Under the pieces are notes generated by a model. That model saw only the letters and a program-made list of their open reading frames with translations. It did not search any database and was not told the origin of the DNA. The translations under genes and the position numbers were made by a program. Of a DNA stretch of 64,000 nucleotides, positions 1,757 through 33,623 are shown in pieces. The stretch is taken from contig NZ_FUZU01000001.1 of the NCBI RefSeq assembly GCF_900167975.1, positions 964,580-1,028,579 of the forward strand, read 5' to 3'. Position 1 is the stretch's first letter. Each line of letters starts with the position of its first letter. Source of the stretch: Ohtaekwangia koreensis. Lineage in GTDB: Bacteria; Bacteroidota; Bacteroidia; Cytophagales; Cyclobacteriaceae.

Positions 1757-1778
1757 GATACTTCTTCTCTTCACTGGT

Positions 1779-7679: not shown

Positions 7680-10600
7680 TTATTTGTATGTCACATCGTT
7701 GTATTTTTCATATTGATTTACAGAACCAGTGTGAGGTAGAGATTTAATATGGTCTGCTGTTCGTACTAACTGCATTGTACACTCTCCCGTTAATGGATCA
7801 AAATCATCTAAATGGTGCCAAGTGTATTGCACACCGTTTACATCTATAGGTTTCTCAATGCTCCCCATGCCTGCTTTTTTGCTCGCTTCTATAAAGTCAC
7901 CACTGGCTCCCGATCTTCTACCCGTCATTTTAATTCTAACAATATTTCTTTGATTCCCTGAGATGGGGAACATGCTATTTGTTGTTGAGAAATCAGGTGT
8001 GAGCCTATTTGCACTCAAAGGATAATCAGACTTGCGATATGGTCTAGAGTATTCATATATATCATACTGTTTTTTAACATTATCATGCAATCCATAAATT
8101 TTTGTCTCTGTTCTTACAAGTAATCGGCCCTGCGTATCTTCTATTACTTCTAGAATAGTATGATTATTTAACTTACTATTCAAATCATTGATAATACTAG
8201 TCGCCGCTTCATTATTAATTAACCCTTTATACTTTATTTTATTTTTACTTACCCATGCTGTTAATTTATTAGCGCCTTCTTGAGATAATTTATTTACAAG
8301 GTCGGCAGGAATTTTGACTTCTGAAGCAACAGCATTACCCAACCTAATCTTTTTAGTGCTCTTGGAGACACCGTCCATACTGACCTCGGCAACCTCATCA
8401 CCATTCAACAGTTTTTTAAACTTGTACTCTGACTTCACTATTCCATCATCAAATAGGTCTACCCAACCATCACTCGCATATAAAGTTTTAGTTGGAATTT
8501 GTTTCGACAACTCTTGTGCTGTAGCTATATCGTTACAAGAAAGTAGACGTATAGATTTGTCACCTGGAATTTGATTAAGTGTATTTGCCAGTTGTTCAAC
8601 TTCAATTGATTTTTCAACGAATGAACCACCTTGTTCTATAATTGTTTTGAATTTGCCATTGCTAAAGTGAACGATCACATCTATATAGTCATCGTTCATT
8701 GCCTTCACAGGGAAGGAAGTTAGATTTACACTCAGTTTCGAATAGGAAAGTGTTTTAGTGACTGATTTACCTAAAGCTTTGCCTATTCCTTGTGCTATTT
8801 TATGCCAATTGTCTTCAGATGTCGTGCGAAGGGTTTTGAGTAAGTTTTTTATTTTATCAATCTTCGATACCACTACCGGCCCCAAAGTCATGACTGTGCT
8901 TACGACTGGAACAACAAGCCTGCCGCGTTCATATCGTCCAACATTATTTGTTGTTTCGAGTGTATTCCAATAATCATTCAGATGTTGTAATACCTGTCCA
9001 GAGAGTTTTTTTATCTCTTCCCAGTTGGTGGCTATTGCATAGAGTTGTTCAATCTCGTCCCTTAATTCCTTTGCATTTTCACATTTGGTGAAATACTCCA
9101 GTAACTCTTCTTTTTGTCCTTCGTAGTCATTCCACCAGTTGTCAGCTCGGTTAACAAGGCCGTCTAGTATTCCTGTACCCTTTTCATTTTCGGCCAACTG
9201 CCTTAGTACGTAATCAAGTTGTTCAGCATTTGCTACCAAATTTCCAGGACTACATTGTATATATGCAGCGGTATAGGCATAAAGAACCTTAGAAGGAATC
9301 TTGCTTATATCTCTAATTAATTGAGGTAAATGATACAAGCCCTCTGCCTCACGATAACCACCATCAACTAGACCTGACAAAAATGGTAAGTCCGCGTTGC
9401 TATAGTACTCAGAGGAAGGAACATTTTGATCTCTCCAAAAGCAATAAGGAATTATACCTTCACCTTCGTAACTTTCCCAACCTTCGTTATTACAGGTTTT
9501 AAAAAAATTATAGATGGCCTTGAGTTTTGCAATAGCTTCTTTATATCCATCCTGATCAAGTAGCGGGGCTGCTTGTTCGTAAAACTCAACCAACGGCGCA
9601 ATTCTATCTACTAACGCAATGCCTGTGACATTGCGTGAATCTTCTTGTTCATCCGATGGTAGCTTACTCCAGTCTACGTCATTTACATTGTTGAAGCGCT
9701 TGGAGATTTTGTCAAATAATTCTTTGTTTGTTTTTTCTGTTTCAATTTTCTCTACCAATTCTGGTGGATGTTCCTCGTAATAAGGAATAATCTCATCCAT
9801 TATATAACGAATCTGGCCCGCATCTCTTTTGAAACAGACCGGTAGTTCCGATGCGAGTAAAACATCTTCATCTATATCTCCACCCTTACCATTGTTTCTC
9901 AGCCAAGCGGCCATTTCCTCTTTGAACTGCCCAAGTATTGAGACAACAATTTTATCTTTAACAGAAAGTGACACAACTGGATTATTACTTCCTGATTGGG
10001 TTGTACTTCCTGCATTCTTTGTCACTTTCCCATCTTCCCCAACGGTATAGCTGTTGCCAGCCGAATCAGCTATAACAGTAGCTTTTACTTTACCAGTCTT
10101 CTCTTCCTTCTTCTGATTGTACGTTGATTCGTTTCCTTCTGTATCAACTACTACGATCTTGCCATCATCATTTACAGATATACTTTTTATAGTGCCTGGT
10201 ACCGTATAATCTGGTTTCGCTGTAGTATTGTCTTTTGTGTTGGGTGTCTTCCTTGGTTCTTCACCAATCTTATGAGCTTCATCTATAGCTTTTGCAGCGG
10301 GGCTTCCCTGATTGTATACCGATTCAAATCCACCCACGACCAATTCACGATCAGTATTTACTTGTCCGGAGAAATTCGAGAGTATACCTGCACCGTTGAA
10401 CCAAGGTACTTTGAGCCAACCTGTGCCTGTATAGTTTCCACCGGAGCCTTTTACGTCAATGATGAGTAGCTTGAAATTGCGGCATGTGATTACCTCACCT
10501 GGAGCTAATGCAAATAAAGGATTGGTATTGGTTGAAGGTTGAATAACTCCATCTGTTCCACACGAATACGAATCAGTAGTTTCTTCATCCGTACGTATAG

Positions 10601-11744
10601 TTTGCAAGGTAGAATACTCGCTATATTGAGGCTTTGCTTCCGCCCGAATCTGCATTTCATATTCAGTATCAGATTGCAAAGAAGGTATAGCTATCCAAAG
10701 CTGATCCGTTACGCTTTCATACCAAACACCTCTGTCTTTGTCATTCTTCTTTTTATAACGAACTCTATATTGCTGCGGTGCCGCTCCATTTTGTGCTGGT
10801 TCCCAACGAAGGTTAATCACTGAAGAATTACCACCATCCTGACGAAAGTTCTCTGGCGTTCCTAATTCATCACCAAACTGGAATACATATACCTCGCTTT
10901 TTCCCTGATTCTTAAAAAGGTCTCTATCCTCTATATCCTTAGCCTGTACCTGCCATGCGTATTTTCGTCCCGGTATTAGAGCAGGTTCGGCAGGGCCATA
11001 TATAATTTGTGTTGATGAAGTAGTGATCTCATATAGCGGCTGCTGACTAAGAAAGGCATCATAGGGATTTCGTGTAGCTGGCCAAATCTCTACCAACTTG
11101 AAAATATATTCTGTAGTAAAAGCAGAGTTAGGTGATCCGGTATGGCGCGGAGTCCACGTAAAGGCAATATTTGTCGGATCAATGATTTTAGCCTTGGTGT
11201 CGTTACGAGGAAGGTTAAGTAAAGGAGGATCATTTAGAATTACCCATGCTACAGCCGTACCTTTATTACTTACAAGCGTACTACGATTATAGTCGAGCAT
11301 TTCCAGCGTAAAGCGATATACACCTTCAGGAAGTTTAGCGCCTTTTTCATATTGGCTTCGAGATATACCGGCAAAGTCAAGATTGTTAGGATTGAAGTAT
11401 TCTTCTAAATCTTCACCAAACAATGTAAGCGATTCACCTCCATATAGTGTAATGGGACTGAGTGGAACGTAATTCGCTTTCGTGCGGATTGTTATACCTA
11501 CACCTTCAATAGTAAGTCGAAGTTTTCCTTTGTAGTCAGTAACGTTTAAATCCCTGAGTAAAAACGAGGCCGTAAACTTTTGTGATCCTGGTTCGGAGTA
11601 ATCCGTGAGAAATGCACTATAAGGAGGCTTCAACGATACGGTAACTTGTACGGGATAGCTCTGCGCATACACGTTAAAGGCGCAGGTTACCACGAACAAT
11701 ATAAGGGCCGATATTTTAATAACTAATTTCAGTGTCATTCTCAT
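7680..11744 (-). CDS. Polymorphic toxin: secreted TANFOR/Fn3-like protein with C-terminal WHH nuclease
   Basis: This is a 1354-aa protein. Domains in order: signal peptide (1-27); a beta-rich N-terminal region resembling the Bacteroidota TANFOR domain (about 28-290); one Fn3 domain (about 300-390); a flexible K/T/G-rich part (about 490-590); a long helical region (about 600-1000); a beta/alpha module with 'IRLLSCND' reminiscent of pre-toxin modules of RHS-type proteins; and a compact C-terminal nuclease (about 1260-1354). The nuclease carries the HNH/EndoVII-fold WHH signature: WHH at 1309-1311, then a 'MQLV' strand, His1332 and His1338 in 'LPHTG'. WHH domains are DNA- or RNA-cutting effectors of polymorphic toxins. 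Its ATG overlaps the barrel gene stop by 4 bp, and a SUKH immunity gene follows at once. The nuclease call is strong; the export route is unknown. Confidence 0.85.
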   Translation of the reverse strand: MRMTLKLVIKISALILFVVTCAFNVYAQSYPVQVTVSLKPPYSAFLTDYSEPGSQKFTASFLLRDLNVTDYKGKLRLTIEGVGITIRTKANYVPLSPITLYGGESLTLFGEDLEEYFNPNNLDFAGISRSQYEKGAKLPEGVYRFTLEMLDYNRSTLVSNKGTAVAWVILNDPPLLNLPRNDTKAKIIDPTNIAFTWTPRHTGSPNSAFTTEYIFKLVEIWPATRNPYDAFLSQQPLYEITTSSTQIIYGPAEPALIPGRKYAWQVQAKDIEDRDLFKNQGKSEVYVFQFGDELGTPENFRQDGGNSSVINLRWEPAQNGAAPQQYRVRYKKKNDKDRGVWYESVTDQLWIAIPSLQSDTEYEMQIRAEAKPQYSEYSTLQTIRTDEETTDSYSCGTDGVIQPSTNTNPLFALAPGEVITCRNFKLLIIDVKGSGGNYTGTGWLKVPWFNGAGILSNFSGQVNTDRELVVGGFESVYNQGSPAAKAIDEAHKIGEEPRKTPNTKDNTTAKPDYTVPGTIKSISVNDDGKIVVVDTEGNESTYNQKKEEKTGKVKATVIADSAGNSYTVGEDGKVTKNAGSTTQSGSNNPVVSLSVKDKIVVSILGQFKEEMAAWLRNNGKGGDIDEDVLLASELPVCFKRDAGQIRYIMDEIIPYYEEHPPELVEKIETEKTNKELFDKISKRFNNVNDVDWSKLPSDEQEDSRNVTGIALVDRIAPLVEFYEQAAPLLDQDGYKEAIAKLKAIYNFFKTCNNEGWESYEGEGIIPYCFWRDQNVPSSEYYSNADLPFLSGLVDGGYREAEGLYHLPQLIRDISKIPSKVLYAYTAAYIQCSPGNLVANAEQLDYVLRQLAENEKGTGILDGLVNRADNWWNDYEGQKEELLEYFTKCENAKELRDEIEQLYAIATNWEEIKKLSGQVLQHLNDYWNTLETTNNVGRYERGRLVVPVVSTVMTLGPVVVSKIDKIKNLLKTLRTTSEDNWHKIAQGIGKALGKSVTKTLSYSKLSVNLTSFPVKAMNDDYIDVIVHFSNGKFKTIIEQGGSFVEKSIEVEQLANTLNQIPGDKSIRLLSCNDIATAQELSKQIPTKTLYASDGWVDLFDDGIVKSEYKFKKLLNGDEVAEVSMDGVSKSTKKIRLGNAVASEVKIPADLVNKLSQEGANKLTAWVSKNKIKYKGLINNEAATSIINDLNSKLNNHTILEVIEDTQGRLLVRTETKIYGLHDNVKKQYDIYEYSRPYRKSDYPLSANRLTPDFSTTNSMFPISGNQRNIVRIKMTGRRSGASGDFIEASKKAGMGSIEKPIDVNGVQYTWHHLDDFDPLTGECTMQLVRTADHIKSLPHTGSVNQYEKYNDVTYK

Positions 11745-13878: not shown

Positions 13879-13909
13879 TTGGTTTCTTACATCAAGCACC
13901 ATACTTTTA
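13879..13909 (+). promoter_or_regulatory. Putative Bacteroidota sigma-70 promoter of the peptide operon
   Basis: TTGG at 13879-13882 and TACTTTTA at 13902-13909 are separated by 19 bp. The Bacteroidota consensus is TTTG - about 19 bp - TAnnTTTG, so the -7 element matches at 7 of 8 positions. Transcription would start about 55-60 nt upstream of the precursor-peptide ATG at 13972. Confidence 0.45.
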
Positions 13910-13971: not shown

Positions 13972-14115
13972 ATGAAAAAGTTATCACTTGAAAAAATGGC
14001 TAAAATTGAAGGTGGGGTAGGTAAAATGGACGATAAGACTTGTTCCAACTTACTTGAGAAGATGCTCATTACAGGTATGATCGGATATGGCAATTTATAC
14101 ATGAAATACTGCTAA
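13972..14115 (+). CDS. Double-glycine leader peptide (bacteriocin-like precursor, 47 aa)
   Basis: The ORF has an ATG and a TAA stop. The leader MKKLSLEKMAKIEGG is a textbook double-glycine leader: Leu at 4 and 6, Met9, Ile12, Gly14-Gly15. Cleavage after Gly15 would release a 32-residue peptide starting VGKMDDKTC. It contains two cysteines (Cys24 and the terminal Cys47) and a hydrophobic glycine-rich middle (ITGMIGYGN), typical of small membrane-active bacteriocins or signal peptides. A C39-peptidase ABC transporter that would cleave and export it is encoded in the same direction at 17610. I infer a disulfide between the two cysteines, helped or controlled by the CxxC protein at 17085. No homologue name is claimed; a signalling role is the alternative. 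Confidence 0.85.
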   Translation: MKKLSLEKMAKIEGGVGKMDDKTCSNLLEKMLITGMIGYGNLYMKYC

Positions 14116-14127
14116 TAGTTATCCTTA

Positions 14128-14163
14128 ATGGTTACAGTCCTTATTTATTAAGGCTGTAACCAT
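14128..14163 (+). terminator. Strong hairpin between precursor gene and the rest of the operon
   Basis: Arms ATGGTTACAG (14128-14137) and CTGTAACCAT (14154-14163) are perfect complements. The stem continues with CCTTA/TAAGG around a 5-nt loop, leaving one bulged T at 14138. That makes a 15-bp stem 12 nt after the precursor stop codon. No U-run follows, so it more likely acts as a partial terminator or an mRNA-3'-end stabiliser. Either would give more precursor than exporter, as is common in bacteriocin operons. Confidence 0.6.
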
Positions 14164-14184
14164 ATAAATTCAGAATGCACTTCT

Positions 14185-15495
14185 ATGAGGATATTTATAC
14201 TAGCTACGTTTTTATTCCTGCTCTCAAAAAACGAGTCAATTAGTCAAACAAGGAATTTAATCAATCTAACAGGCAAAACCCTAAATGAGGATGGCTTGGC
14301 GATTCCTTTTGTAAATATTAGTCTCACTTCTGATCCTTCAATAGGAAGTTACTCAAATGCATCAGGAGAGTTTCAAATACAATTTATATCTGCTCAGGAC
14401 GACTCATTAAAATTCTCTAGCATTGGCTTTGCGAATACTGTTATACCTGTCTATAAGTTAAATGACATTAGCGATTCACTGAAAGTGCTTCTGCATAGCA
14501 AAGTATATCTACTTGATGTGGTTGAGATCACTTCTGATACCGCATTATCTATCGTTAGAAAAAGTATTGATAAATTAAAAAACAACCTAGATGGTAACAA
14601 ATCTATTCTGCAAGGGTTTTACCGCGAAGTAATTAGATCAGACTATACATACGACCGACTGGTAGAGGCTGCCGTAGACGTATTTGATAAAGGTTATTCA
14701 TCTGGTGAAATGCAATTTAAAGTGCGTGAGATCAGAAAGAGCGATGACTTTCGCGACATGGATTGGAAAATGACAATCATGAATTATATACAACCCGTTA
14801 ACGGGCTAAACGGTCAGCATGAGTCTTTATTCTCCAATGATTATATACGGAATAATACAGAGAAGTATTTCTTTATATCAAATGCTCCCTTGAACGAAGA
14901 GTTCTTTAAGGAAGTCATTTTTACGCTCGATAGTGTAGGACTGGAAGATTCACAAGAAATCCTTTGTATAGGTATTAGACCAACAAGCGAATCAGACTAT
15001 CAGGGATCAACCGGGCATATATATATCCGAAAAAAGGATTTTGCGATTCTGGAAATGAAATTTGAATTAAACCTTGAACCAGGTCACCCCTTCGCCTTGC
15101 CCGGTCAAACCTTCATGCACCAAACGCTGATAAAGTATAAAGACTATCAGGGTAAAATGTATCTAAGCCTGCTCCATCGAAAATCTTTTCGGTTTGAGCT
15201 AAACGAAGACAAGTTTGACAAAGCCAAGAAAAAAGGAAAAGTGGAAGGTCACTTCTTCAATGAGTCTTTGTTTGTTACCAATGAAATAATAACTGAAAAG
15301 AGTAAAGCAAAGGCTTTCCAGAGGAAAGAAAGACAAAAAGGAAATATTGATCTATACAGCAAGGAATGGAAATACAACGAAGCATTCTGGAAGAACTATA
15401 ATATAGTCGTACAGCGTCCACTGGAACCTTCTATAAAAAAAGACATTGAAAGGGGGAACACACTTGATGAGCAATTCAGGAAGAACAGCAACTAG
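14185..15495 (+). CDS. Carboxypeptidase-regulatory-like domain protein of the peptide operon
   Basis: This is a 436-aa protein with a signal peptide (1-20). Residues 25-105 form a CarboxypepD_reg-like beta-sandwich ('GKTLNEDGLAIPFVNISL', 'YSNASGEFQIQF', 'IGFANTVIPV'), as found in SusC-type and other Bacteroidota surface proteins. The remaining 330 residues ('FYREVIRSDY...', 'GHIYIRKKDFAILEM') are typical of a family of Bacteroidota secreted or outer-membrane-associated proteins of unknown function. It is the first gene after the hairpin, and its end overlaps the next gene. It may act at the outer membrane in export of, or protection from, the peptide; that is inference. Confidence 0.75.
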   Translation: MRIFILATFLFLLSKNESISQTRNLINLTGKTLNEDGLAIPFVNISLTSDPSIGSYSNASGEFQIQFISAQDDSLKFSSIGFANTVIPVYKLNDISDSLKVLLHSKVYLLDVVEITSDTALSIVRKSIDKLKNNLDGNKSILQGFYREVIRSDYTYDRLVEAAVDVFDKGYSSGEMQFKVREIRKSDDFRDMDWKMTIMNYIQPVNGLNGQHESLFSNDYIRNNTEKYFFISNAPLNEEFFKEVIFTLDSVGLEDSQEILCIGIRPTSESDYQGSTGHIYIRKKDFAILEMKFELNLEPGHPFALPGQTFMHQTLIKYKDYQGKMYLSLLHRKSFRFELNEDKFDKAKKKGKVEGHFFNESLFVTNEIITEKSKAKAFQRKERQKGNIDLYSKEWKYNEAFWKNYNIVVQRPLEPSIKKDIERGNTLDEQFRKNSN

Positions 15496-15979
15496 GTTTT
15501 TGCTTTGCGCTATAACGCTTTTGATCTTTTCACATTGTCAAAAGAAAATGATCAGCTATTCCAAGCAAAGGAATTCAGTTTCACAATATGCTTTGCTGAA
15601 CGATTCTACGCTTCAGCTATCAGGTATATCAAGCGATTTTGCTTTCGGCACAACTGAGCAAAAGCCAGTAATGTTGGGATTGCAGGATATAAATGAAGCT
15701 GCGAAAAGTGTCGAAAAATATCTCAATGCGCTAACAGGGCCAAATGGAGAAAGCATTTCATACAAACGCTTAAAACCATGTTGCCCTTTCAAAACAAAGA
15801 ATTTAATTCTTAATTATCCGATGCATGAGTTTAATGGCAAGTATGGAATGCTTGAAAAATATAGCGTGTCCTATACTGTGCATGCACAAACGCAATCTGT
15901 TACCCTATATATTAATCTATATGACGAAACAAAAGAGTTACTGGCACCACACGGATTTTCCTATAAGAAAGGTCAATAG
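15467..15979 (+). CDS. Lipoprotein with CCxFKT motif, copy 1
   Basis: I chose the ATG at 15467 over the upstream one at 15446 because it places a compact lipoprotein signal (RFLLCAITLLIFSHC) near the N-terminus, giving 170 aa. It overlaps the previous gene by 29 bp. The mature part has 'KYLNALTGPNGE', 'YKRLKPCCPFKT' and a final 'LYINLYD...PHGF'. This pattern recurs in a Bacteroidota lipoprotein family that, as I recall, is sometimes mislabelled as a KDO-8-phosphate synthase; no catalytic motif of that enzyme is visible. The next gene is a paralogue. Both may be surface-anchored immunity or accessory proteins for the exported peptide, which is inferred from position. Confidence 0.75.
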   Translation: MSNSGRTATRFLLCAITLLIFSHCQKKMISYSKQRNSVSQYALLNDSTLQLSGISSDFAFGTTEQKPVMLGLQDINEAAKSVEKYLNALTGPNGESISYKRLKPCCPFKTKNLILNYPMHEFNGKYGMLEKYSVSYTVHAQTQSVTLYINLYDETKELLAPHGFSYKKGQ

Positions 15980-16448
15980 TTCAATACTGATAATTTTAAT
16001 AGTTGTCATCGCAAGCTGCAAAAGTGAAAAACTACATTGGACAACGAAACAAAAGAACACGCTTGAGTCTATTCCAGAAATAGATTCTATTCTGGTTCTG
16101 GAAGGAGTTTCTAAAAGTTCGAAATATGGCTATACTCCCGAAGCGCCCATTACATTGGGAGTTAGAAATCAATATGTATCTGTAACCTATCCGGAAAAAT
16201 ACCTTAACTCACTAACAGGGCCACAAGGAGAGCAGGTTTTGTATGAACGGGTAAAAAGTTGTTGCTTTTTTAAAACAGCAAATAGTGATGCTGCCTACCA
16301 AAACGTTGGCGTGTTAGAAATATATGAAGTCAGCTACGAAGGATTGAAAACACCCAAACTCCTATACCTAAATTTCTTTGACGAGGGAAAAGCCTTTGCA
16401 CCACAAGGGTTTTTGCCAAAAAAAACCATTGCATCCACTAAACCTTAG
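15921..16448 (+). CDS. Lipoprotein with CCxFKT motif, copy 2
   Basis: This is a paralogue of the preceding protein. It shares 'EKYLNSLTGPQGE', 'YERVKSCCFFKT', 'GVLEIYEVSY' and 'LYLNFFDEG...PQGF'. I chose the ATG at 15921 because it gives a basic n-region and a hydrophobic segment ending in the lipobox VIASC, for 175 aa. A longer frame back to 15825 would bury this signal. It overlaps copy 1 by 59 bp, suggesting tight coupling. A non-ATG start nearer 15960 cannot be excluded. The two copies have diverged strongly outside the motif, which argues for an old duplication kept for two related roles. Confidence 0.7.
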   Translation: MTKQKSYWHHTDFPIRKVNSSILIILIVVIASCKSEKLHWTTKQKNTLESIPEIDSILVLEGVSKSSKYGYTPEAPITLGVRNQYVSVTYPEKYLNSLTGPQGEQVLYERVKSCCFFKTANSDAAYQNVGVLEIYEVSYEGLKTPKLLYLNFFDEGKAFAPQGFLPKKTIASTKP

Positions 16449-16461
16449 CTATCACTATTCA

Positions 16462-17088
16462 ATGAACTCGTTAGTACTCTTTGGCATACTCGTTTTCTTA
16501 AATTTTTTATTATCCTTTGGCATCAATAGATTAATTCTAACAGAAGACGTTTACTATTATGCTCTCATCGACACACTCTCAGAAGAAAGGATACATGAAC
16601 TACTCAATAGCCAGAAGAAATTCGAATGGATTATATACTCTTTCGGGCCTGTAGTTTACGCTCTCAAATTATTCTTGATGGCTGCTTGTATTTATATAGG
16701 CTTTTTTTTTCGCAATCTCACTGTTAAATTCAGTACGCTCTTTGAGGTTGCTTTGAAAAGCGAATTTGTGTTTCTCCTTATTCCCGCAGCACGTTTATTC
16801 TGGTTCACCTTCTTCGATCAGAATTACTCACTGGATAACGTTTTAGAGTTTCCTTCCTATACCGCAGCCTCCATTTTTCCTCACGGCTTCCTTGCATTTT
16901 GGATTAAATACCCATTAGGCTTCGTTAACATTATTCAACTGGCCTATATCCTGATACTGGCAAAAGGAATTTCCAATGATCTTGAAATGAAGTATAGTGA
17001 TTCTGCAACGCTTGTTTTTCAAACGTATGGTGTCGCTTTACTGATCTGGATTTTATTCACGTTGTTTTTACTCATCAGCTATTCATGA
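16462..17088 (+). CDS. Integral membrane protein of the peptide operon (208 aa)
   Basis: The ATG at 16462 (MNSLVLFGILVFLNFLL) directly starts a transmembrane helix and is preferred over the in-frame ATG at 16378, which lies inside the lipoprotein gene. About five hydrophobic segments are visible: residues 2-20, about 53-80, about 93-113, about 145-175 and the C-terminal 185-207. I do not recognise a family. It ends in an ATGA overlap with the thioredoxin-like gene, so the pair is probably translated together. Membrane protein plus thioredoxin-like partner could be a disulfide-handling pair for the cysteine-containing peptide, or the membrane protein could be the immunity protein. Confidence 0.75.
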   Translation: MNSLVLFGILVFLNFLLSFGINRLILTEDVYYYALIDTLSEERIHELLNSQKKFEWIIYSFGPVVYALKLFLMAACIYIGFFFRNLTVKFSTLFEVALKSEFVFLLIPAARLFWFTFFDQNYSLDNVLEFPSYTAASIFPHGFLAFWIKYPLGFVNIIQLAYILILAKGISNDLEMKYSDSATLVFQTYGVALLIWILFTLFLLISYS

Positions 17089-17594
17089 CAAGAACTACAT
17101 TAAAGAAATTCGCTCTACTGTCACTATCTGGTATCATTGTATTCTTGCTTTCTATCCTGATACAAAAGATCAGCCACGAATCAGAGGTTGAAAGTCTTAG
17201 ACAAAGCCTTGAAGACTTTCCCTTAATTGAAAGTGACGGTAGTCAAACCAGTTCAACAGCTTTATGCAATGGCACTACAGTACTTATACTTTTTAATTCC
17301 ACCTGTGAACACTGTCAAGCTGAAATAAAAGATATAAGTGAACATCATGTTCTTTTCAAAGAAACTGCGGTCGCTTTGATTTCGACAGAACCCCTGGAAG
17401 TAATTAACGCCTTTGCCAGCGATTTTAAACTAGACAACCTCGGTCATTTCAAATGTTATCACGTTTCATCGGATGACCTGTACAAACATTTTGGAACGGT
17501 GGCGTATCCCGAAATATATATCTATAAAAATCTCCAATTGACAAGTCATCTCAAGGGCGAAGCTAAAGCGGAATTGATTCTTGAAAACTTATAA
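17085..17594 (+). CDS. Membrane-anchored thioredoxin-like protein (CEHC)
   Basis: This is a 169-aa protein. One N-terminal membrane helix (about 9-27) would anchor a periplasmic thioredoxin-fold domain. The redox motif is C74-E-H-C77 in 'LFNSTCEHCQAEI', preceded by the usual 'VLILFNS' strand; the cis-Pro region is likely 'VAYPEIYIY'. This layout is like TlpA/ResA-type proteins. It overlaps the preceding membrane-protein gene by 4 bp, and the transporter gene starts 15 bp after its stop. It is a good candidate for making or breaking the disulfide in the exported peptide, whose mature form has exactly two cysteines. That link is inference. Confidence 0.82.
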   Translation: MTRTTLKKFALLSLSGIIVFLLSILIQKISHESEVESLRQSLEDFPLIESDGSQTSSTALCNGTTVLILFNSTCEHCQAEIKDISEHHVLFKETAVALISTEPLEVINAFASDFKLDNLGHFKCYHVSSDDLYKHFGTVAYPEIYIYKNLQLTSHLKGEAKAELILENL

Positions 17595-17609
17595 TGCTCT
17601 GATCTTTCA

Positions 17610-19709
17610 ATGAACCTCAAACATATCAAGAGTACGTTTTTACGCCAACAAGGGCAAAATGATTGTGGCGTTGCCTGCTTGTGCTCTATTATAAAATTTC
17701 ATGGTGGTGAAGCGAGTCCTAGCAAAATCAGATTGGAAAGCGGGACACTCCACACGGGGACTACGATGCTTGGTCTATATCAGGCGGCAACAACGCTTGG
17801 TTTTGATGCCGAAGGTCTTGAGGCAGGCAGCGTTGATGATTTGAAATCCCTCCAGCATCCTGCTATACTAAGTGTACTGACAAAAGAAAATCAGCCACAC
17901 TATCTCATATACTATGGATTTAAAGAGGAGCATATTGTTATTGGCGATCCTGCAACCGGAATTACTACCTACTCGAAAGACGAGCTTGAAAATGTATGGA
18001 AGGAAAAGACCCTGTTGACACTTCAACCAACGGAATGTTTCAATAAAAAACAGGAAGTGACTGGTAAACTTCAACTTCTACAATCACTGATTAAACAAGA
18101 TTTACCGCTTCTGTATATAACACTAGCTATCGGTGTTATCACTGCTACACTTGATTTATCTTCTGCTATATTTTCTCAGCGACTTATCGATGATTTTCTG
18201 CCAGCGCATAACATGCAAAAAATAGTTATCAGTTTAGTGCTTCTGATCGTATTACTGTTTTGTAAAACCAGTCTTAACTATCTGCGTGGTCTGTTTGTAG
18301 TTAAACAAAGTAAAGATTTTAGTATCCGTATCATTGATCATTTCTATAGCTCACTCATAAGGCTACCGAAAATATTTTTTGATTCAGCAAAGACCGGAGA
18401 GCTTATATCGAGAATGAACGATACAAGCAAAATTCAATCAACACTTCAAGCGATCACGGGAAGCATCACCATTTCTGTATTGATCTTATTTGCATCCATT
18501 ATACTTTTATCAAGCTATTCAGTTGTTTTCGCAGTTGTTATACTATTGTTTCTTCCCATATATAGCATAGTGCTCCTTCATTTCAATAATACGATAGCAG
18601 CATCTCAAAGAGCAGTTATGTCGAACTACGGTCAGGCAGAAGCAAACTATATTGACAGCATTCAGGGTATTACAACGATTAAAAACACTTCAGGCGAAGG
18701 ATGGTTTTCAAATCTCAACAAACGGATATATACTTTACTTCAAGATTCTATATTTAGACTTGGCCAAACTCATAACCGCTACATATTCATTGCCGACTCT
18801 CTGGGAGTTTTGTTTATCACATGCATGCTTGGAACAGCCGCATGGCTGGTTTTGAATAACGAGCTAAAGACCGGAGAGCTGGTAGCGACTCTTGCTGTGG
18901 CCGTCAACATAAGTCCACTGGTGACTCGGATTTTACTTGGCAACATACAGATACAGGAGGCGCTTGCCGCACTGGATCGAATGAATGATATAACCTCCAA
19001 TCAAAAAGAGTTTGACGAAAACAAACCACGCGATGAAGATCATCCTCTAAACGCTCTTAGCCTCTCCATTGAAGCCAGAAACATTGCATTTCGATTCACC
19101 GGGAGAGAACAGCTATTAAAAGATATATCCTTTCATGTTCGGCAAGGTGAAATTATTACAATCACCGGTGAGAGTGGTGGTGGCAAAAGCACCATCTTGC
19201 AAATCCTTCAAAGATTCTATAAGCCAGAAAGAGGAACAATCACTGTAAGTGGGATTTTACTTAATCAAATCCCGATTCCGACATGGCGTAGTCATACTGC
19301 CGTAGTACCACAGGAAGTAAAAATATTTAACGGTACTCTTTTGTATAATATAGCATTAAGTACCGATCCGGATAAAGCTTCATCGGCTATTCAATTCTGC
19401 GTAGAGTATGGCTTCGATAAGTTCTTTCGCTCGTTACCACAGGGGTATTCAACACTTATTGGTGAAGATGGTATAAATCTTTCTGGTGGACAGAAACAAA
19501 TCCTCGCTTTTGCGAGAGCACTCGTGCAAATTCCTAAACTGCTTCTCATTGATGAAGGCATGGCTTCAATGGACAGCAAGACTGAGAAGTTCATAATAGA
19601 TTTGCTGCTGGGACTCAAGAAACGAATGGCTACGGTGATTATATCACACCGGTTAAACATAACAGCGTATTCAGACAGGACATATCTTCTTAAAGACGGA
19701 TGTATATAA
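17610..19709 (+). CDS. Peptidase C39-domain ABC transporter (double-glycine peptide exporter)
   Basis: This is a 699-aa protein. The N-terminal C39 protease domain (1-125) has Cys19 in 'QNDCGVACL', His97 in 'QPHYLIYYG' and Asp113 in 'IGDPATG'. The transmembrane region (about 160-440) is a six-helix ABC exporter domain. The ATPase domain has Walker A GESGGGKST (about 519), signature LSGGQKQ, Walker B 'LLLIDEGMASMD' and H-loop 'VIISHRL'. Such proteins cut double-glycine leaders and export the released peptide. The 47-aa precursor at 13972 is the evident substrate. The protein stops at 'LLKDGCI', without the usual 20-25-residue tail (ExGTHxEL). The ATPase core is complete, so it is probably functional. 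Confidence 0.93.
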   Translation: MNLKHIKSTFLRQQGQNDCGVACLCSIIKFHGGEASPSKIRLESGTLHTGTTMLGLYQAATTLGFDAEGLEAGSVDDLKSLQHPAILSVLTKENQPHYLIYYGFKEEHIVIGDPATGITTYSKDELENVWKEKTLLTLQPTECFNKKQEVTGKLQLLQSLIKQDLPLLYITLAIGVITATLDLSSAIFSQRLIDDFLPAHNMQKIVISLVLLIVLLFCKTSLNYLRGLFVVKQSKDFSIRIIDHFYSSLIRLPKIFFDSAKTGELISRMNDTSKIQSTLQAITGSITISVLILFASIILLSSYSVVFAVVILLFLPIYSIVLLHFNNTIAASQRAVMSNYGQAEANYIDSIQGITTIKNTSGEGWFSNLNKRIYTLLQDSIFRLGQTHNRYIFIADSLGVLFITCMLGTAAWLVLNNELKTGELVATLAVAVNISPLVTRILLGNIQIQEALAALDRMNDITSNQKEFDENKPRDEDHPLNALSLSIEARNIAFRFTGREQLLKDISFHVRQGEIITITGESGGGKSTILQILQRFYKPERGTITVSGILLNQIPIPTWRSHTAVVPQEVKIFNGTLLYNIALSTDPDKASSAIQFCVEYGFDKFFRSLPQGYSTLIGEDGINLSGGQKQILAFARALVQIPKLLLIDEGMASMDSKTEKFIIDLLLGLKKRMATVIISHRLNITAYSDRTYLLKDGCI

Positions 19710-19773: not shown

Positions 19774-20112
19774 TTATTCTCTCCATCCAAAGAAAATATA
19801 ATACAGTGTCCAACGCTTGCGCTTACCCGTTAAGCTATAAAGCCAACCGTAATTTTTGGCGTCTTTTTTATGTTGAGCATCATGCTCCTCTTGGTTTGAA
19901 AATACCTGAAGATTTTCTGGCGAATTGTCGCGCTTATTTCGATTAATATGGTGTACAACTTCCGCTGCCCGTAATTTTCTGCCTAGTGTCTTTTCAGCAA
20001 CCCAACGATGAACTAGCCTGTTGCTATTCTTAAAGCGAAAGTATCCTTTATCGTCAATATGGACTTTAGATTCCTTTTTAGTTTCTCCAAACAAAAAGTT
20101 GAATAGTCTCAT
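19774..20112 (-). CDS. HNH endonuclease
   Basis: This is a 112-aa protein. The N-terminal half reads like a DNA-binding strand/helix unit ('GYFRFKNSNRLVHRWVAEKTLG'). The HNH motif follows: 'VVHHINRNKRDNSPENLQVF', then 'EEHDAQH', with the first His pair, the central Asn and the final His all in place. Proteins of this kind are small nicking or homing-type nucleases, often found singly or in phage-like regions. It is convergent with the ABC transporter gene, which ends 65 bp away. Whether it belongs to the downstream mobile element or is a lone insertion is open. Confidence 0.87.
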   Translation of the reverse strand: MRLFNFLFGETKKESKVHIDDKGYFRFKNSNRLVHRWVAEKTLGRKLRAAEVVHHINRNKRDNSPENLQVFSNQEEHDAQHKKDAKNYGWLYSLTGKRKRWTLYYIFFGWRE

Positions 20113-23091: not shown

Positions 23092-26000
23092 ATGCTAACA
23101 GCAGAAAACGATAAGGGCAAATTTATTCGCCATGTATGGGAGAATCTTCGTACAGGTGTCCGGGATACAAAAACCTCTATTGAAAAGATAGCGGCCTCTT
23201 ACGGCATCGACGATAAGACGCATGTAAAGGAGTATACCGAACTGGCCATAGTACTGAAAGCTCGAAGTATAGCGCAATCTCAAGAATCTGTTGAAGAAAA
23301 ATACTGGAGCATTGTAAAACTATACGAGAGTCAAGTAACGCTATCCCATCGAACCAGCCAGAGTGTGCTGCTACAACAATATAGTACACCGGCACCTATA
23401 TCTTTTCTTGCAGGCATATTTGTAAATGCGAATGAAGCTATATCTGTCTTTGAACCTTCTGCCGGAAACGGATTATTAACGGTCGCTGCACACCCGTCAA
23501 GGGTAACTGTAAACGAAATTGATCCTATACGAAGATCAAATTTGCTAGATCAGGGATATAGTGAAGTTTTAAATCAAGACGCCACATTACCCTTTAAGGG
23601 ATTTGAAAAGAAATTTGATTCGGTAATTACCAATCCTCCGTTTGGTATTCACGCAGAAGTAAACTATGAAGGATTCCGGATAAAGACACTGGATCACCTG
23701 ATGGCGTTACGTGCCCTTGATACCATGAAAGATAATGGTAAGGCTGCCATCATTATAGGAGGGCATAACCGTTACGACAAAAAGGGAAGATTTCAGAAGG
23801 GCGAGTGGCGTTTCTTCTTTAACTATATCTATAGCCGCTACCATGTGTCTGATTTACTCAACATCAACGGACGCGAGCTATACTCAAGGCAAGGGACATC
23901 TTTTAATACTCGTCTTATACTTATTAATGGACGTAAGGCAATTCCCACGGGAGCCGCTCCTATTGCTGATAAAGAGCGTGATAAAGTTGTCGATTCTTTT
24001 GAAGCGCTCTATGAGCGAGTAATAGAGCAGGTAGAACCAAGAAAATTAATTCGCATGAATGATTTAGAAGCAGAAGCGCGCGAACTAGAAGCGCTATTAA
24101 CAGGCGATGACTTAGGAAGCACCGCTAACCACAAGGTTATCGTTATACTCGGTCAGCAGTATTGGATCATTCAAGAGTATAAAGGATATAATATTGTTCG
24201 CAGGGTAAAGGAAAGAGACTCGCTTATCTATGTTCATAATCCGCGGCACCATTCTCTTTTTGCAGTTGCTCATGTGAATACCAGTTCAACAAGCGGAAGC
24301 AGGCGATTTATACCGGAGACGAATACCATTGAAACTGCACGCGCCTATATAGATTGGGTAGTGGGGTATACAGATGTTAATGGCTCAGAACTAGGCATGC
24401 CGTATACACCTGCTTCTGAAAGTTGTTTTGTACTCGATACGGTTGTGCCGGATTCAATGGGCTATGAAACGCATGCTGCGCTGAAAAGAATAAAAGAAGC
24501 TGTCGGTGGCGATATGGATGAATACGTTCGCGAAAGGTTAAACTATAAGACCAAGACAGAGCTTTGCAAAGCTTTATCCGCAGAACAGATCGATGCTGTA
24601 GCAATGGCGATCTATAACATCGAAGAACGCGGGCAAGGCATGATTATAGGTGATCAAACCGGTATCGGAAAAGGTCGCATCGCTGCGTCCATCGTCCGAT
24701 ATGGTGTTGAGCAAGGTGTACAACCAATTTTCATAACCGAGAAAGCAAACCTGTTTTCAGATATATACCGCGACCTTTCAGCGATCGGATCAGCACATCT
24801 TGTACCGTTCATTGTCAATGGACGTGAAGGCAAAACAGATATAAAGGATGAAGAAGGAAATGTAGTATATCAAGCATTAGCGCCCGCAGAACAGAACCAG
24901 ATCTTTATGCGTGAACGTGTGCCGGCAAACTATGATTTTGTTGTTGCTACCTATTCACAGTTCAATTCTCCAGACAGTAAACCTGTCAAACCGAATTTTT
25001 TAAAAGCTATAGCAAGGGAGAATATTATCATTATGGATGAAGCGCACAATTCGTCCGGCTCTGGTAACACCGGCACTTTTATGCAATCGGCTATTGAACA
25101 TACCCGCGGTGTAGTATTTCTCTCGGCAACCTTTGCAAAACGTCCGGACAACATGCCGCTATATGCGATGAAGACTTCTATACGTGATGCCAGTCTTAGT
25201 CGTGAAGGATTAATTGAGGCTATAACTATAGGTGGCGTAGCCTTACAGGAGGTACTGGCTAGCCAGCTTGTAGCCGAAGGCCAGATGATCCGCAGAGAAA
25301 GGTCTTTTGAAGGAGTAGAAGTAAACTATATAACGCTTGATGAAAAGGAGGCGGAACATAAAGCCATTGCCGATAACATCACCGAGATTGTTCGCGACAT
25401 TATCAGCTTCCAAACTAATTATGTCGATAAGCAGGTTGAAGAAATGGATGACCTTGCCGTAGCCGAGGGAAAGCAGGTAGAGGTTCGTGAAGGAACTTCA
25501 CAGGCCGGAGTAGATAACCTTCCGTATTTCTCCAAGGTCTTCAACGTTATCAATCAAATGTTATTCTCGATCAAGGCAGAATCAGTAGCCGAAAGGGCAA
25601 TAGCAAGACTCAAGGAAGGCAAGAAACCTGTCATTGCTTTTGCCTCTACGATGGGAAGCTTTATTGAGCAGATGGAAAATGAGAATGGTACACCTGTATC
25701 GGATGGCGATGTTATCCTGGCTGATTTTTCCATCGTGTTGCAAAAAGGATTGGAAGGTGTACTTCGCTATACTGTAACAGACGTAGATGGACGAAGAGTA
25801 TTTGAGACTTTTGATATTACCACATTTTCAGCGGAAGCGCAGCAAGAGTATCAACGGATCAGTGAACGCATCCGGGAGGCTTCAACCGGTATATCTATAT
25901 CTCCCATTGATATTATCATTGAGAAAATTCAAACCGCAGGATATACCGTTGCGGAAGTCACGGGCAGAAAATACAAAATTCAATTCAGCGCAGCGCATGA

Positions 26001-28257
26001 AAATGATAGCCTCGGTATAGCCGGAGGAAAATCTAATTACACCCACGGGGATAAAGTAATTCAAACCTCAACCGGAAAAGTTGGCTTCATTAAATTCATT
26101 TCAAAGATAGGAAGTGTCATACCGGGACGGGATAACTCAAGAAGTTATGATTTCGAGTACGAGGTAGAACTTGAAGAAGAAGACATGTTCGTGACTGTGG
26201 CTGAGAGTGATCTAAAGCCATATATACCCTCACAGAAAAAAAGCTTCACAGGGCTAGTACTTTCACGCAAACGAGAAAATACCAACGATGCTTTTCGAAA
26301 GTTTAATAACAACGAAGTAGATGTATTGCTTATCAATCAGTCCGGCTCAACCGGTGCTTCAGCACATGCCATTGTTACACCCAAAGTAACTAAGGAAAAA
26401 GTAAAGCAACGGGTGATGATTGTATTACAGCCTGAACTTGACATAAGCACAGAGGTACAGAAACGCGGTAGAATCAATCGCACGGGACAGTTGCATAAAC
26501 CTATATATGATTACGTGAACTCTGCTATACCGGCAGAAAAGCGCTTGATGATGATGCTCCAGAAAAAATTAAAATCACTGGATGCTAACACGACCTCCAA
26601 TCAGAAGTCCTCGACCAAAATTCTGGACGTACCGGATTTCTTGAATAAATATGGTGACAAGGTAGTAGAAGAATACCTGAATGAAAATCCTGAAATCAAC
26701 GGGCTTCTTAACTATCCGCTTGAATCTGGTGATAAGGAAGATGCTGCCCATAAAGTATCAGGACGCGTAGCAGTATTATCCACGGAGATGCAGCAAAAAT
26801 TCTATATCGAAATATCTGAAAGATATAGTGAGCATGTGGACTACCTGAAACAATCGGGAGAGTATGATCTGGAAGTAGAAGCGATGGACCTACAGGCTGA
26901 GACTATATCATTACGTCCTGTGATCGTGGGCAAAGGTGGCTATAGTGCATTTGGTGATGATAGTATATTGGAAACAGTCATGGCCAACGTATTAAAGAAA
27001 CCATTCACAAAAACAGAAATTGATAAACTTTTAACGGATTCACTTCAGGGTAACGATGCGAAAACGCTACAGCAGGAAATGATTGCTGAACACAAAGCAT
27101 TTCAAGAAGTAGAGATTAACCGGGAGCTACTTGATAATGTCTCACAGTATGATAAGCTCAATGCAGAAATACCCAACGAGAAGAAGCTTCAAAAAATACT
27201 ACAGAAGGACGGACAGGATGCCTATGATCAGGCCGTTGCCAGCCGGGCAAAAGAAGTGGAAAAAGCTCGGATAGATTCACAGGATAGAATTAAGAAACTA
27301 TATACCAATCGTGGGTTTTTGATTGAGAGGATCATGAAATCCTTTTTTGTTGGGCGATTACTGAATTACCCGGTAAACACTTTTGACAATGGTGCAGGAA
27401 CTGTACCCGGTATATTTCTTGGTTTTATGATCGACAAAAAAAGACTGAATCCTTATGCGCCAAGCTCATTACGCATGCGGTTTGCACTGGCTAATGGCAA
27501 TAAGTATATGGTCGTACCTGCCAGCAACAGCCAAGTCATTCATGGAATCATTGGAGCGAGTAGTACTATAGCACAACCTGACTACACGGATCTGCTTGAC
27601 ATGTGGGAAGGCGCTATAAAGGAAAGTACGGTGAATAGAAAAATCCGTCACATTGTTACGGGAAATGTGCTTCAGGCATTCAGTGAATATAGAGGGAAGC
27701 TTGTCAACTATACCACTAGCAATGGCGAAACAAAAAAAGGTATACTTCTGCCGGAATATTGGAAAACAGAGGAAGGTAAAAAGCAAGAGACCATTGTTCC
27801 GTTGTTCAGGGCGATTAAGGTCATTCGCTCTTTGATAACTGGTGCAGCCATCACTACAAGCAATGGTGTATCCATCCTGAGAACAAGTGGACATTTCAAG
27901 ATTATGGTTGCGGCTGCCCGTTCCAAAGGTGGTAATGTATATCTCGATTCAGATATACTCATGCTTGTCAATAAAAACAACTTTGAGAAAGTGTCGGATA
28001 AAATGACAGCCTTACTGGAAGTAGATAGAATTGATCGGTTCGTTGAAGTCCTGCAAGAGAAATTAAACGATAGCCTTTCACTTAAACCGACACAATATGA
28101 ACTCATCAGAAATGATATACCAAAACGTATGGTACAGGCACAGCAAAAACCTGGAACTGCTATTCAACCGAAGAATAAATCTATAACTATAGATACACTG
28201 GAGCTTGAAGCGTTGGCATTAGAGCTTGAATTAGAACTATTAAACTTTGCAGCATAA
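23092..28257 (+). CDS. Fused N6-methyltransferase / Strawberry-notch-type helicase (1721 aa)
   Basis: The N-terminal part has the 'QQYSTPAPISFLAG' region and an adenine-methyltransferase domain: FEPSAGNG (about 120) for SAM and NPPF (about 180) as catalytic motif. The superfamily-2 helicase part follows: Walker A GDQTGIGKGR (about 519), DEAH box 'IIMDEAHNSSG' (about 648) and the Strawberry-notch C-terminal motif 'QKRGRINRTGQ' (about 1122). The last 400 residues are unassigned. Such fusions occur in phages, plasmids and integrative elements; phage P1 DarB (anti-restriction) is the best known. A role in protecting or remodelling element DNA is likely. Its TAA overlaps the next ATG (TAATG). An antiphage role is the alternative. 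Confidence 0.88.
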   Translation: MLTAENDKGKFIRHVWENLRTGVRDTKTSIEKIAASYGIDDKTHVKEYTELAIVLKARSIAQSQESVEEKYWSIVKLYESQVTLSHRTSQSVLLQQYSTPAPISFLAGIFVNANEAISVFEPSAGNGLLTVAAHPSRVTVNEIDPIRRSNLLDQGYSEVLNQDATLPFKGFEKKFDSVITNPPFGIHAEVNYEGFRIKTLDHLMALRALDTMKDNGKAAIIIGGHNRYDKKGRFQKGEWRFFFNYIYSRYHVSDLLNINGRELYSRQGTSFNTRLILINGRKAIPTGAAPIADKERDKVVDSFEALYERVIEQVEPRKLIRMNDLEAEARELEALLTGDDLGSTANHKVIVILGQQYWIIQEYKGYNIVRRVKERDSLIYVHNPRHHSLFAVAHVNTSSTSGSRRFIPETNTIETARAYIDWVVGYTDVNGSELGMPYTPASESCFVLDTVVPDSMGYETHAALKRIKEAVGGDMDEYVRERLNYKTKTELCKALSAEQIDAVAMAIYNIEERGQGMIIGDQTGIGKGRIAASIVRYGVEQGVQPIFITEKANLFSDIYRDLSAIGSAHLVPFIVNGREGKTDIKDEEGNVVYQALAPAEQNQIFMRERVPANYDFVVATYSQFNSPDSKPVKPNFLKAIARENIIIMDEAHNSSGSGNTGTFMQSAIEHTRGVVFLSATFAKRPDNMPLYAMKTSIRDASLSREGLIEAITIGGVALQEVLASQLVAEGQMIRRERSFEGVEVNYITLDEKEAEHKAIADNITEIVRDIISFQTNYVDKQVEEMDDLAVAEGKQVEVREGTSQAGVDNLPYFSKVFNVINQMLFSIKAESVAERAIARLKEGKKPVIAFASTMGSFIEQMENENGTPVSDGDVILADFSIVLQKGLEGVLRYTVTDVDGRRVFETFDITTFSAEAQQEYQRISERIREASTGISISPIDIIIEKIQTAGYTVAEVTGRKYKIQFSAAHENDSLGIAGGKSNYTHGDKVIQTSTGKVGFIKFISKIGSVIPGRDNSRSYDFEYEVELEEEDMFVTVAESDLKPYIPSQKKSFTGLVLSRKRENTNDAFRKFNNNEVDVLLINQSGSTGASAHAIVTPKVTKEKVKQRVMIVLQPELDISTEVQKRGRINRTGQLHKPIYDYVNSAIPAEKRLMMMLQKKLKSLDANTTSNQKSSTKILDVPDFLNKYGDKVVEEYLNENPEINGLLNYPLESGDKEDAAHKVSGRVAVLSTEMQQKFYIEISERYSEHVDYLKQSGEYDLEVEAMDLQAETISLRPVIVGKGGYSAFGDDSILETVMANVLKKPFTKTEIDKLLTDSLQGNDAKTLQQEMIAEHKAFQEVEINRELLDNVSQYDKLNAEIPNEKKLQKILQKDGQDAYDQAVASRAKEVEKARIDSQDRIKKLYTNRGFLIERIMKSFFVGRLLNYPVNTFDNGAGTVPGIFLGFMIDKKRLNPYAPSSLRMRFALANGNKYMVVPASNSQVIHGIIGASSTIAQPDYTDLLDMWEGAIKESTVNRKIRHIVTGNVLQAFSEYRGKLVNYTTSNGETKKGILLPEYWKTEEGKKQETIVPLFRAIKVIRSLITGAAITTSNGVSILRTSGHFKIMVAAARSKGGNVYLDSDILMLVNKNNFEKVSDKMTALLEVDRIDRFVEVLQEKLNDSLSLKPTQYELIRNDIPKRMVQAQQKPGTAIQPKNKSITIDTLELEALALELELELLNFAA

Positions 28258-29891: not shown

Positions 29892-29925
29892 ACAGAAAGA
29901 AACACTCTTAACAAACTATATATCT

Positions 29926-33449: not shown

Positions 33450-33455
33450 AAAGGC

Positions 33456-33543: not shown

Positions 33544-33551
33544 TATTTTTG

Positions 33552-33623
33552 TGGCCCCGGCAGGAATCGAACCTGCATCTTCAGAATCGGAATCTGAAAT
33601 TCTATCCATTGAAATACGGAGCC
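33552..33623 (-). tRNA. tRNA-Arg (anticodon CCG)
   Basis: Read on the minus strand, the 7-bp acceptor stem pairs GGCTCCG with CGGGGCC (one G-T pair) and has discriminator A. The anticodon arm is TCAGA-TTCCGAT-TCTGA, with anticodon CCG decoding CGG arginine. The T-arm is GCAGG-TTCGATT-CCTGC. No CCA is encoded. Its 3' end faces the integrase gene, making it the presumed integration site, and the gene remains intact at this junction. Confidence 0.95.

What the first reader, a model, noticed from the sequence alone, without database searches (positions are those of the whole stretch)
13972..19709. Complete double-glycine peptide export operon with an unannotated 47-aa precursor
The ORF at 13972 has a textbook GG leader, two cysteines and a good promoter, and the operon ends in a C39-peptidase exporter. 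Between them lie twin lipoproteins, a membrane protein and a CxxC thioredoxin-like protein. The peptide itself is below usual gene-calling length and would be missed.
Basis: partly seen in the sequence, partly recalled or inferred. Interest (0 to 1): 0.8.

Follow-up and report, generated by a model that had tools for sequence, protein, structure and literature searches.

The report
Bacteroidetocin-like secreted peptide operon
A tiny gene that makes a two-cysteine peptide heads a seven-gene bacterial operon that looks able to cut, fold and export it, most likely as a weapon against related bacteria, and a possible peptide-binding partner protein is encoded right behind it.

Summary
Window 13972-14115 is a 47-aa ORF with a 15-residue double-glycine leader, heading an operon that ends in a C39-peptidase ABC exporter (17610-19709). 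It is not a chance ORF: such leaders occur on the coding strand near the same membrane-protein/thioredoxin/C39 genes in 76 of 112 loci, window included, with 0 opposite-strand hits. The closest known system is the bacteroidetocin region (PMC6671954). A GG- or AG-leader peptide gene precedes it in 7 of 7 named loci that have it before the membrane protein. Other loci have lipocalin-like proteins there. I propose these bind the peptide, for immunity or hand-over (inferred). A hairpin follows the peptide gene, as in 57 of 96 peptide ORFs tested. The 32-aa core has no detectable homologue and is shorter than published cores (42-53), so this is a new variant, not a bacteroidetocin proper. The locus lies in a putative island at tRNA-Arg. 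Killing is inferred, not shown.

The parts
13879..13908 (+). Bacteroidota-type promoter-like site (TTG-N20-TANNTTT)
   Evidence: pattern match only, weak
13972..14115 (+). 47-aa double-glycine precursor peptide
   Evidence: leader conserved in relatives' operons
13972..14016 (+). 15-residue leader, cleavage expected after Gly15
   Evidence: GG at 14-15 is required by the search pattern; beyond that, residues 2, 3, 4, 6, 7, 9, 11 and 12 carry the commonest letter of the 104 hits, residues 5, 8, 10 and 13 do not
14017..14112 (+). 32-aa mature core, Cys9 and Cys32, 4 basic and 3 acidic residues
   Evidence: no detectable core homologue
14128..14163 (+). stem-loop behind the peptide gene, inside the operon
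   Evidence: z -4.6; a hairpin (z < -2) in this place in 57 of 96 peptide ORFs, this one included
14185..15495 (+). 436-aa exported protein: CarboxypepD_reg/SusC-NTE-like domain plus LolA/RseB-like half-barrel (model); candidate peptide-binding partner or immunity protein
15467..15979 (+). lipoprotein A of a family without significant Pfam or NCBIfam match; Cys-Cys pair invariant in 9 sequences
15921..16448 (+). lipoprotein B, paralogue of A (36% identity)
16462..17088 (+). five-TM membrane protein, family of the peptide operons
   Evidence: no Pfam family, no PDB fold match at E <= 0.001
17085..17594 (+). membrane-anchored thioredoxin-like protein, CEHC motif
17610..19709 (+). C39-peptidase ABC exporter, 699 aa
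32061..33449 (-). tyrosine recombinase (Phage_int_SAM_5) beside tRNA-Arg; edge of the putative island that holds the operon
33551..33623 (-). tRNA-Arg(ccg); collinearity with sister genome G005 stops at its 3' end

Best explanation
This is a bacteroidetocin-type class II bacteriocin operon on a putative genomic island of a Cytophagales bacterium. The 47-aa precursor is made in excess of the machinery because a hairpin behind its gene limits read-through or protects the peptide mRNA (inferred). The C39 domain of the exporter removes the 15-residue leader after Gly-Gly and the ABC part moves the 32-aa core into the periplasm (inferred from the family). The membrane-bound CEHC thioredoxin-like protein closes one Cys9-Cys32 disulfide (inferred; deletion of the equivalent gene attenuates activity in the published system). 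The five-TM protein assists in a way not yet known (its deletion too attenuates activity there). The 436-aa CarboxypepD_reg/LolA-like protein binds the peptide's hydrophobic face in the periplasm, either to hand it on outward or to protect the producer, and the twin lipoproteins help with this (both inferred). The released peptide most likely inhibits related Bacteroidota (inferred).
For: GG-leader ORFs: 104 hits in 76 of 112 loci on the coding strand (window included; some nested or repeated), 0 on the other strand, 0 in 291 kb of control. Core trio in 96 of 112 loci. CxxC in 103 of 103 thioredoxin-like partners. Gene order TM > four-Cys GG peptide > thioredoxin > C39 ABC, the order listed for bacteroidetocins A and B, with extra genes between in three of them, in L129, L133, L167 and L171; their TM proteins match our TM profile (E 2e-24 to 1e-35). 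The published four genes suffice for killing by E. coli, and deletion of the TM, thiol-oxidoreductase or peptide gene attenuates it (PMC6671954 section 7, read). LolA/MucB-like plus NTE fold matches. Hairpin behind peptide ORFs 57 of 96 against 7 of 116, 11 of 105, 10 of 105 and 0 of 10 behind the other operon genes and 7 of 95 in front of the peptides; later loci 6 of 8. Putative island at tRNA-Arg; published bacteroidetocin A and B regions lie in foreign-looking DNA or an ICE.
Against: The mature core is 32 aa, not 42-53, and has two Cys, not four. It matches no other core: 0.9 bits against the YC-group profile, equalled by 660 of 2000 shuffles; pairwise against 103 cores the eight best scores were reached by 3 to 20 of 100 shuffles; the only other hit in 390 family genomes covers residues 1-21 at E 0.049. 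No antibacterial activity, transcript or peptide has been seen. L100, the best match of the C39 scan, and L233 and L235 have no thioredoxin gene found in the operon. The CarboxypepD_reg family is large: at least 226 of 390 family genomes hold a member and 8 of 20 fetched loci lie outside such operons. Bacteroidetocins A and B work without any such partner gene. 36 of 112 loci gave no strict leader hit and were not examined one by one.
Confidence: 0.68

Rival explanations
1. The peptide is a secreted signal (pheromone) rather than a bacteriocin; the exported partner proteins are receptors or sensors, as the MucB/RseB-like fold might suggest.
For: C39 exporters also export signals in Gram-positive bacteria (abstract of PMC6363468 in the listing). 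MucB (E 1e-4) and RseB (E 2e-3), periplasmic stress sensors, are among the fold matches of the 436-aa protein. Genes that look by eye like response regulators recur within 3.1 kb upstream of the TM gene in 10 loci of 41 (cluster 3, one on the other strand).
Against: No regulator or kinase was found among the operon's proteins. Cores are very diverse between loci and several loci carry two or three, which fits weapons better than signals. The similar published four-gene region makes a killing peptide.
Confidence: 0.17
2. The peptide acts on the producer's own envelope or inside a community as a non-lethal structural or regulatory factor; the operon is general periplasmic maintenance.
For: LolA-like fold and lipoproteins point to the envelope; lipoprotein relatives occur as single genes in 8 other genomes of 59 searched.
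Against: Patchy presence: the TM family in 76 of 390 genomes of the order, and no full-length match of the 47-aa peptide in the 389 other family genomes searched. It lies on a putative island.
Confidence: 0.08
3. The 47-aa ORF is a chance or decayed ORF and the exporter serves another substrate.
For: No homologue of the core; no expression data.
Against: Leader pattern 0 hits in 291 kb control and 0 on the opposite strand of 438 kb; position and hairpin as in relatives; no other strict-pattern ORF in the window.
Confidence: 0.05

Closest known systems
Bacteroidetocin biosynthesis regions (Coyne et al. 2019, PMC6671954)
   Same: 15-residue GG leader; five-TM protein, thiol oxidoreductase and C39 ABC exporter in one region; location in mobile or foreign-looking DNA; at least two Cys in the core.
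   Different: Core 32 aa with two Cys rather than 42-53 aa, four Cys in A and B; peptide first, not second, in the operon; an added CarboxypepD_reg/LolA-like gene and twin lipoproteins; activity untested.
Class II bacteriocins and class II microcins with peptidase-containing ABC exporters
   Same: GG-leader peptide exported and cut by a C39 ABC protein.
   Different: No HlyD-type adaptor was found by Pfam among the operon's genes or the next two; thioredoxin-like and TM genes are not typical of class IIa regions (stated in PMC6671954 section 7).
LolA / RseB fold proteins
   Same: The 436-aa protein's second domain models as this half-barrel.
   Different: Fused to a CarboxypepD_reg domain; TM-scores of the best matches are low (0.36-0.39 by target) with 9-11% identity; no lipoprotein-carrier role is claimed.

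Membership tests
Bacteroidetocin | Short precursor with a 15-16 residue leader ending in GG | tested here: met
   feature from section 14
Bacteroidetocin | Mature peptide of 42-53 residues | tested here: not met
   32 residues; the range is from PMC8546649, passage
Bacteroidetocin | At least two Cys in the peptide | tested here: met
   two, at 9 and 32 of the core; feature from section 14
Bacteroidetocin | Sequence similarity of the peptide to known bacteroidetocins | tested here: inconclusive
Bacteroidetocin | Orthologue of the five-TM protein | tested here: inconclusive
   homologous to TM proteins of bacteroidetocin-like loci L129, L133, L167, L171; the region of bacteroidetocin A or B itself was not in reach
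Bacteroidetocin | Thiol oxidoreductase gene | tested here: met
   17085-17594, AhpC-TSA above Pfam cut-off, CEHC
Bacteroidetocin | C39-peptidase ABC exporter | tested here: met
Bacteroidetocin | Kills Bacteroidota, target BamA | not testable with these tools
   needs peptide and bioassay
TIGR01193 peptide cleavage/export ABC transporter | Score above the curated cut-off | tested here: not met
   374.4 bits against 523.85; same domains, below the subfamily cut-off
YC two-cysteine GG peptide group (seen here) | Core matches the group profile | tested here: not met
   0.9 bits; 660 of 2000 shuffles score as high

The most novel reading that the evidence does not exclude
Bacteroidota GG-peptide operons of this type often encode, directly behind the peptide, an exported protein with a hydrophobic-ligand-binding fold drawn from unrelated families (CarboxypepD_reg/LolA-like, lipocalin-like, tandem CarboxypepD_reg-like). 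These are the cognate immunity or outer-membrane hand-over proteins, for which no gene has been identified in bacteroidetocins, and the pair is separated by a hairpin, conserved in place but not in sequence, that sets the peptide-to-partner ratio.
Probability: 0.3. Interest if true: 0.68.

Novelty: new variant of a known kind. Interest (0 to 1): 0.47.

Why it matters
Published bacteroidetocins have no known immunity gene and producers are sensitive to their own toxin in the overlay assay (PMC6671954 section 7, read). The relatives gathered here, from Cytophagales, Flavobacteriaceae and some Bacteroidales assemblies (titles), show the same exporter core with many unrelated peptides, a hairpin behind more than half of the peptide ORFs tested, and in a number of loci an exported binding-protein-like gene behind the peptide. 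That gives testable immunity or carrier candidates and a simple rule for finding such peptides, which are short enough for ordinary gene calling to miss.

Tried and rejected
Membership of the window core in the YC two-Cys group was tried twice and rejected (ten sequences: 0.5 bits, 221 of 1000 shuffles as high, 18 sequences: 0.9 bits, 660 of 2000). A resemblance by eye (C-N-L ... G ... N-L-Y ... Y-C) was therefore not used.

The lipoproteins as a defining part of the operon type: rejected; relatives are single genes in unrelated places in 8 other genomes of 59 searched (in one the match lies in a 788-aa ORF) and only the window and L100 of 112 loci have them near such an operon.

The CarboxypepD_reg gene as specific to such operons: rejected; the family is in at least 226 of 390 family genomes (only four candidates per genome were scored) and 8 of 20 fetched loci were outside.

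A solved-structure relative of the five-TM protein (none at E <= 0.001) or of the lipoproteins (none at E <= 1): nothing found. tblastn of the L133 TM protein against plasmids, in the hope of a named bacteroidetocin region: no match. Exact ends of the island: no direct repeat of 14 bases or more between the tRNA region and the rest of the window, 12 bases only further left, so its left end is open.

Literature searches: bacteroidetocin (15 papers listed), GG leader with Bacteroidetes and C39 (19 listed), GG with Flavobacteria and bacteriocin (15 of 22 listed), bacteroidetocin with immunity or carboxypeptidase regulatory-like (10 of 17 listed). I saw listings with starts of abstracts for these; the outline, sections 7, 8, 12 and 14 and passages of PMC6671954; passages only of PMC8546649, PMC11195462 and PMC10352776. 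Figures and supplements were not seen. Within these I saw nothing on a CarboxypepD_reg partner of such peptides or on a hairpin behind their genes; that is no proof of absence.
Full report
What is there. The window belongs to a 7.24-Mb genome in six contigs. Genomes given the same family label hold contigs identical in length to records of Chryseotalea sanaruensis and Marivirga aurantiaca (G269:C3 and L104; G387:C32 and L107), so I take it as Cytophagales (taxonomy of Chryseotalea). On the + strand from 13972 to 19709 lie, in order: a 47-aa ORF; a 436-aa protein with an N-terminal signal-like helix (Pfam CarbopepD_reg_2 5e-9); two overlapping lipoprotein genes of one family; a 208-aa membrane protein that I read as five TM segments; a 169-aa membrane-anchored AhpC/TSA-type protein with CEHC; and a 699-aa C39-peptidase ABC exporter. 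The gaps are 69 bases behind the peptide, 13 before the TM gene and 15 before the exporter gene; the other neighbours overlap. The ORF's translation is MKKLSLEKMAKIEGG plus a 32-residue core with Cys 9 and Cys 32.

Is it more than chance. I collected 112 loci with the TM gene: 40 high-ranking places from a search of 390 genomes of the order (76 genomes positive at E <= 0.001, the weaker ones perhaps other paralogues), 71 of 80 loci from a scan of named genomes with the C39 domain (the other 9 had no TM match in reach), and the window. The first set is selected for the TM gene and the two sets share some genomes. A strict pattern (ATG, GG at residues 14-15, 28-100 aa) gave 104 hits in 76 of 112 loci on the coding strand up to 4.5 kb upstream of the TM gene and 0 on the other strand of the same 438 kb; some hits are nested starts or the same genome twice. 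Nine control loci (291 kb counting both strands) gave 0, and the window's only hit is the 47-aa ORF. The 36 loci without a strict hit were not examined one by one; some have peptides downstream of the TM gene, other leader lengths or Ala-Gly. The trio TM, thioredoxin-like and exporter is in 96 of 112 loci; some of the others are short contigs.

What it works like. Sections 7, 8, 12 and 14 of PMC6671954 (read) describe bacteroidetocin regions as TM protein with five segments, GG peptide, thiol oxidoreductase and C39 exporter; deletion of any of the first three attenuates killing, and the four genes suffice in E. coli. Loci L129, L133, L167 and L171 (Dysgonamonadaceae and Prevotellaceae assemblies) have this order, the last three with further genes in between, and GG peptides of four Cys. 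Their TM proteins are recognised by the profile built from the window and the loci of the order (E 2e-24 to 1e-35); the window's TM protein is 28% identical to that of L133. So the window's operon shares its machinery with bacteroidetocin-like loci. I could not compare with the bacteroidetocin A or B regions themselves. The window core is shorter than published mature peptides (32 against 42-53; passage) and no other core resembles it: a search of 390 family genomes found its own copy and one match over residues 1-21 at E 0.049, and pairwise and profile comparisons with the session's cores stayed within shuffles. I therefore file it as a variant, not as a bacteroidetocin.

The gene behind the peptide. 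In all 7 named loci with a homologue just before the TM gene (L100, L103, L104, L109, L121, L145, L152) a GG-type peptide gene (Ala-Gly in L121) lies directly in front of it. A family-wide search shows that the protein family itself is common (at least 226 of 390 genomes at E <= 1e-25). Of the places it listed I fetched 20, the best 13 and 7 weaker ones (the partial match G352 was passed over; it is L079 of an earlier fetch, downstream of an exporter). Of these 20, 12 lie next to such peptides and 8 do not, among them the window genome's own second copy (L244). Of the 13 members above 300 bits 10 are linked to peptides, of the 7 below 2. The model (pLDDT 70, pTM 0.77, eight sequences) has a CarboxypepD_reg/SusC-NTE-like domain (9hfj, target TM-score 0.81) and a LolA-like half-barrel (3bk5, 3buu; E 5e-7 to 7e-7, target TM-score 0.36-0.37; MucB 1e-4, RseB 2e-3). 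In other loci the slot behind the peptide holds different exported-looking proteins. One kind is about 140 aa long: nine proteins in six loci cluster together; of five scanned, two match Lipocalin_4 above the Pfam cut-off, one below, two not; in L098 each of two peptides has its own. Another kind is two to four tandem CarboxypepD_reg-like proteins (L133, L167, L171; the three scanned are below the Pfam cut-off, E 1e-4 to 1e-6). LolA and lipocalin folds bind hydrophobic ligands in known cases (general knowledge). My inference is that these proteins bind the peptide, for immunity or for hand-over to the outer membrane. Against it stands that bacteroidetocins A and B work without such a gene and that producers are sensitive.

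The hairpin. Between peptide and partner gene the window has a 36-base stem-loop (14128-14163, z -4.6). In 96 peptide ORFs (identical peptides once; the window's included; one gene counted twice through a nested start) the 65 bases behind the stop fold with mean z -2.94 and 57 are below -2; behind TM, thioredoxin, exporter and CarboxypepD_reg genes it is 7 of 116, 11 of 105, 10 of 105 and 0 of 10, and upstream of the peptides 7 of 95. Eight peptide genes fetched later gave 6 of 8 below -2, two of the six nearly identical. The stems do not visibly share sequence. The simplest reading is a leaky terminator or 3' protector that yields more peptide mRNA than machinery mRNA; this is inferred.

Twin lipoproteins. 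They are 36% identical, with an invariant Cys at the lipobox and an invariant Cys-Cys pair in nine sequences. Single relatives occur in 8 other genomes of 59 searched, in unrelated surroundings. L100, the locus with the highest C39 identity (60%), has one of them between the TM and exporter genes, where other loci have the thioredoxin gene. Their role is open; a lipoprotein immunity role is a guess by analogy.

The five-TM protein gave a confident model (pLDDT 94.5) with no PDB fold match at E <= 0.001; at most two of 33 members match any Pfam family at E <= 0.1, at chance level. It is the least understood part of the system.

Location. The operon lies left of a tRNA-Arg with a tyrosine recombinase beside it. 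Of seven genus genomes four hold the gene right of the tRNA (the window's own among them). I looked at two others: G005 is 94-97% identical right of the tRNA's 3' end and not left of it, and G004 is not collinear beyond that gene. In G005 about 3.9 kb follow the tRNA, part of which matches the window genome elsewhere (C6:801733-803918); the DNA after that matches C6:911510-923306, about 75 kb left of the tRNA. The operon thus lies in DNA absent from that place in G005, probably an island; its left end is not defined. G+C is 0.36-0.39 over the operon and 0.39-0.45 right of 34 kb, but window 1-6000 and 23-28 kb, also left of the tRNA, are at 0.41-0.45, so composition alone does not mark it.

What is shown and what is not. 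Shown by sequence: the ORF, its leader's conservation in place, the operon and its synteny, the hairpin excess, the partner's recurrence. Inferred: transcription, cleavage, disulfide, export, binding by the partner, killing. Verdict: a real and sound observation; a new variant of a known kind with one useful idea (partner proteins as immunity or carrier) that can be tested.

Noticed in passing
window 32061-33623: Tyrosine recombinase beside tRNA-Arg(ccg); collinearity with sister genome G005 stops at the tRNA 3' end, so roughly 75 kb to the left look like an island.
   Followed up: partly
window 23092-30402: 1721-aa protein with AAA_34 and Strawberry-notch C-terminal helicase domains and a weak N6-methylase match, and further on a GTA_holin_3TM protein at 29875-30402.
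   Followed up: no
window 7680-11744 (-): 1354-aa secreted-looking protein whose last 80 or so residues look, by eye only, like a WHH/HNH nuclease tail as in polymorphic toxins.
   Followed up: no
window 19774-20112 (-): HNH_3 endonuclease gene directly behind the exporter, opposite strand.
   Followed up: no
L076, L082, L089, L090, L098, L103, L104, L109, L121, L152, L231-L235, L240: A recognisable group of two-Cys GG peptides (YC...C); 18 members in the profile, leave-one-out 9.6-57.6 bits; the window peptide is not in it.
   Followed up: partly
L098:4844-6498: Two GG peptides each followed by its own exported-looking 140-144 aa protein; one of the two matches Lipocalin_4, the other no Pfam family.
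   Followed up: partly
L092, L093 upstream of the TM gene: A protein of about 595 aa recurs upstream of the TM gene in three loci; its start looked LanC-like to me by eye, untested.
   Followed up: no
G000:C6:453221-455287 (L002, L029): A second C39-type ABC exporter in the same genome, 31% identical, with a 395-aa neighbour; no strict GG-leader ORF in the 16 kb around it.
   Followed up: partly
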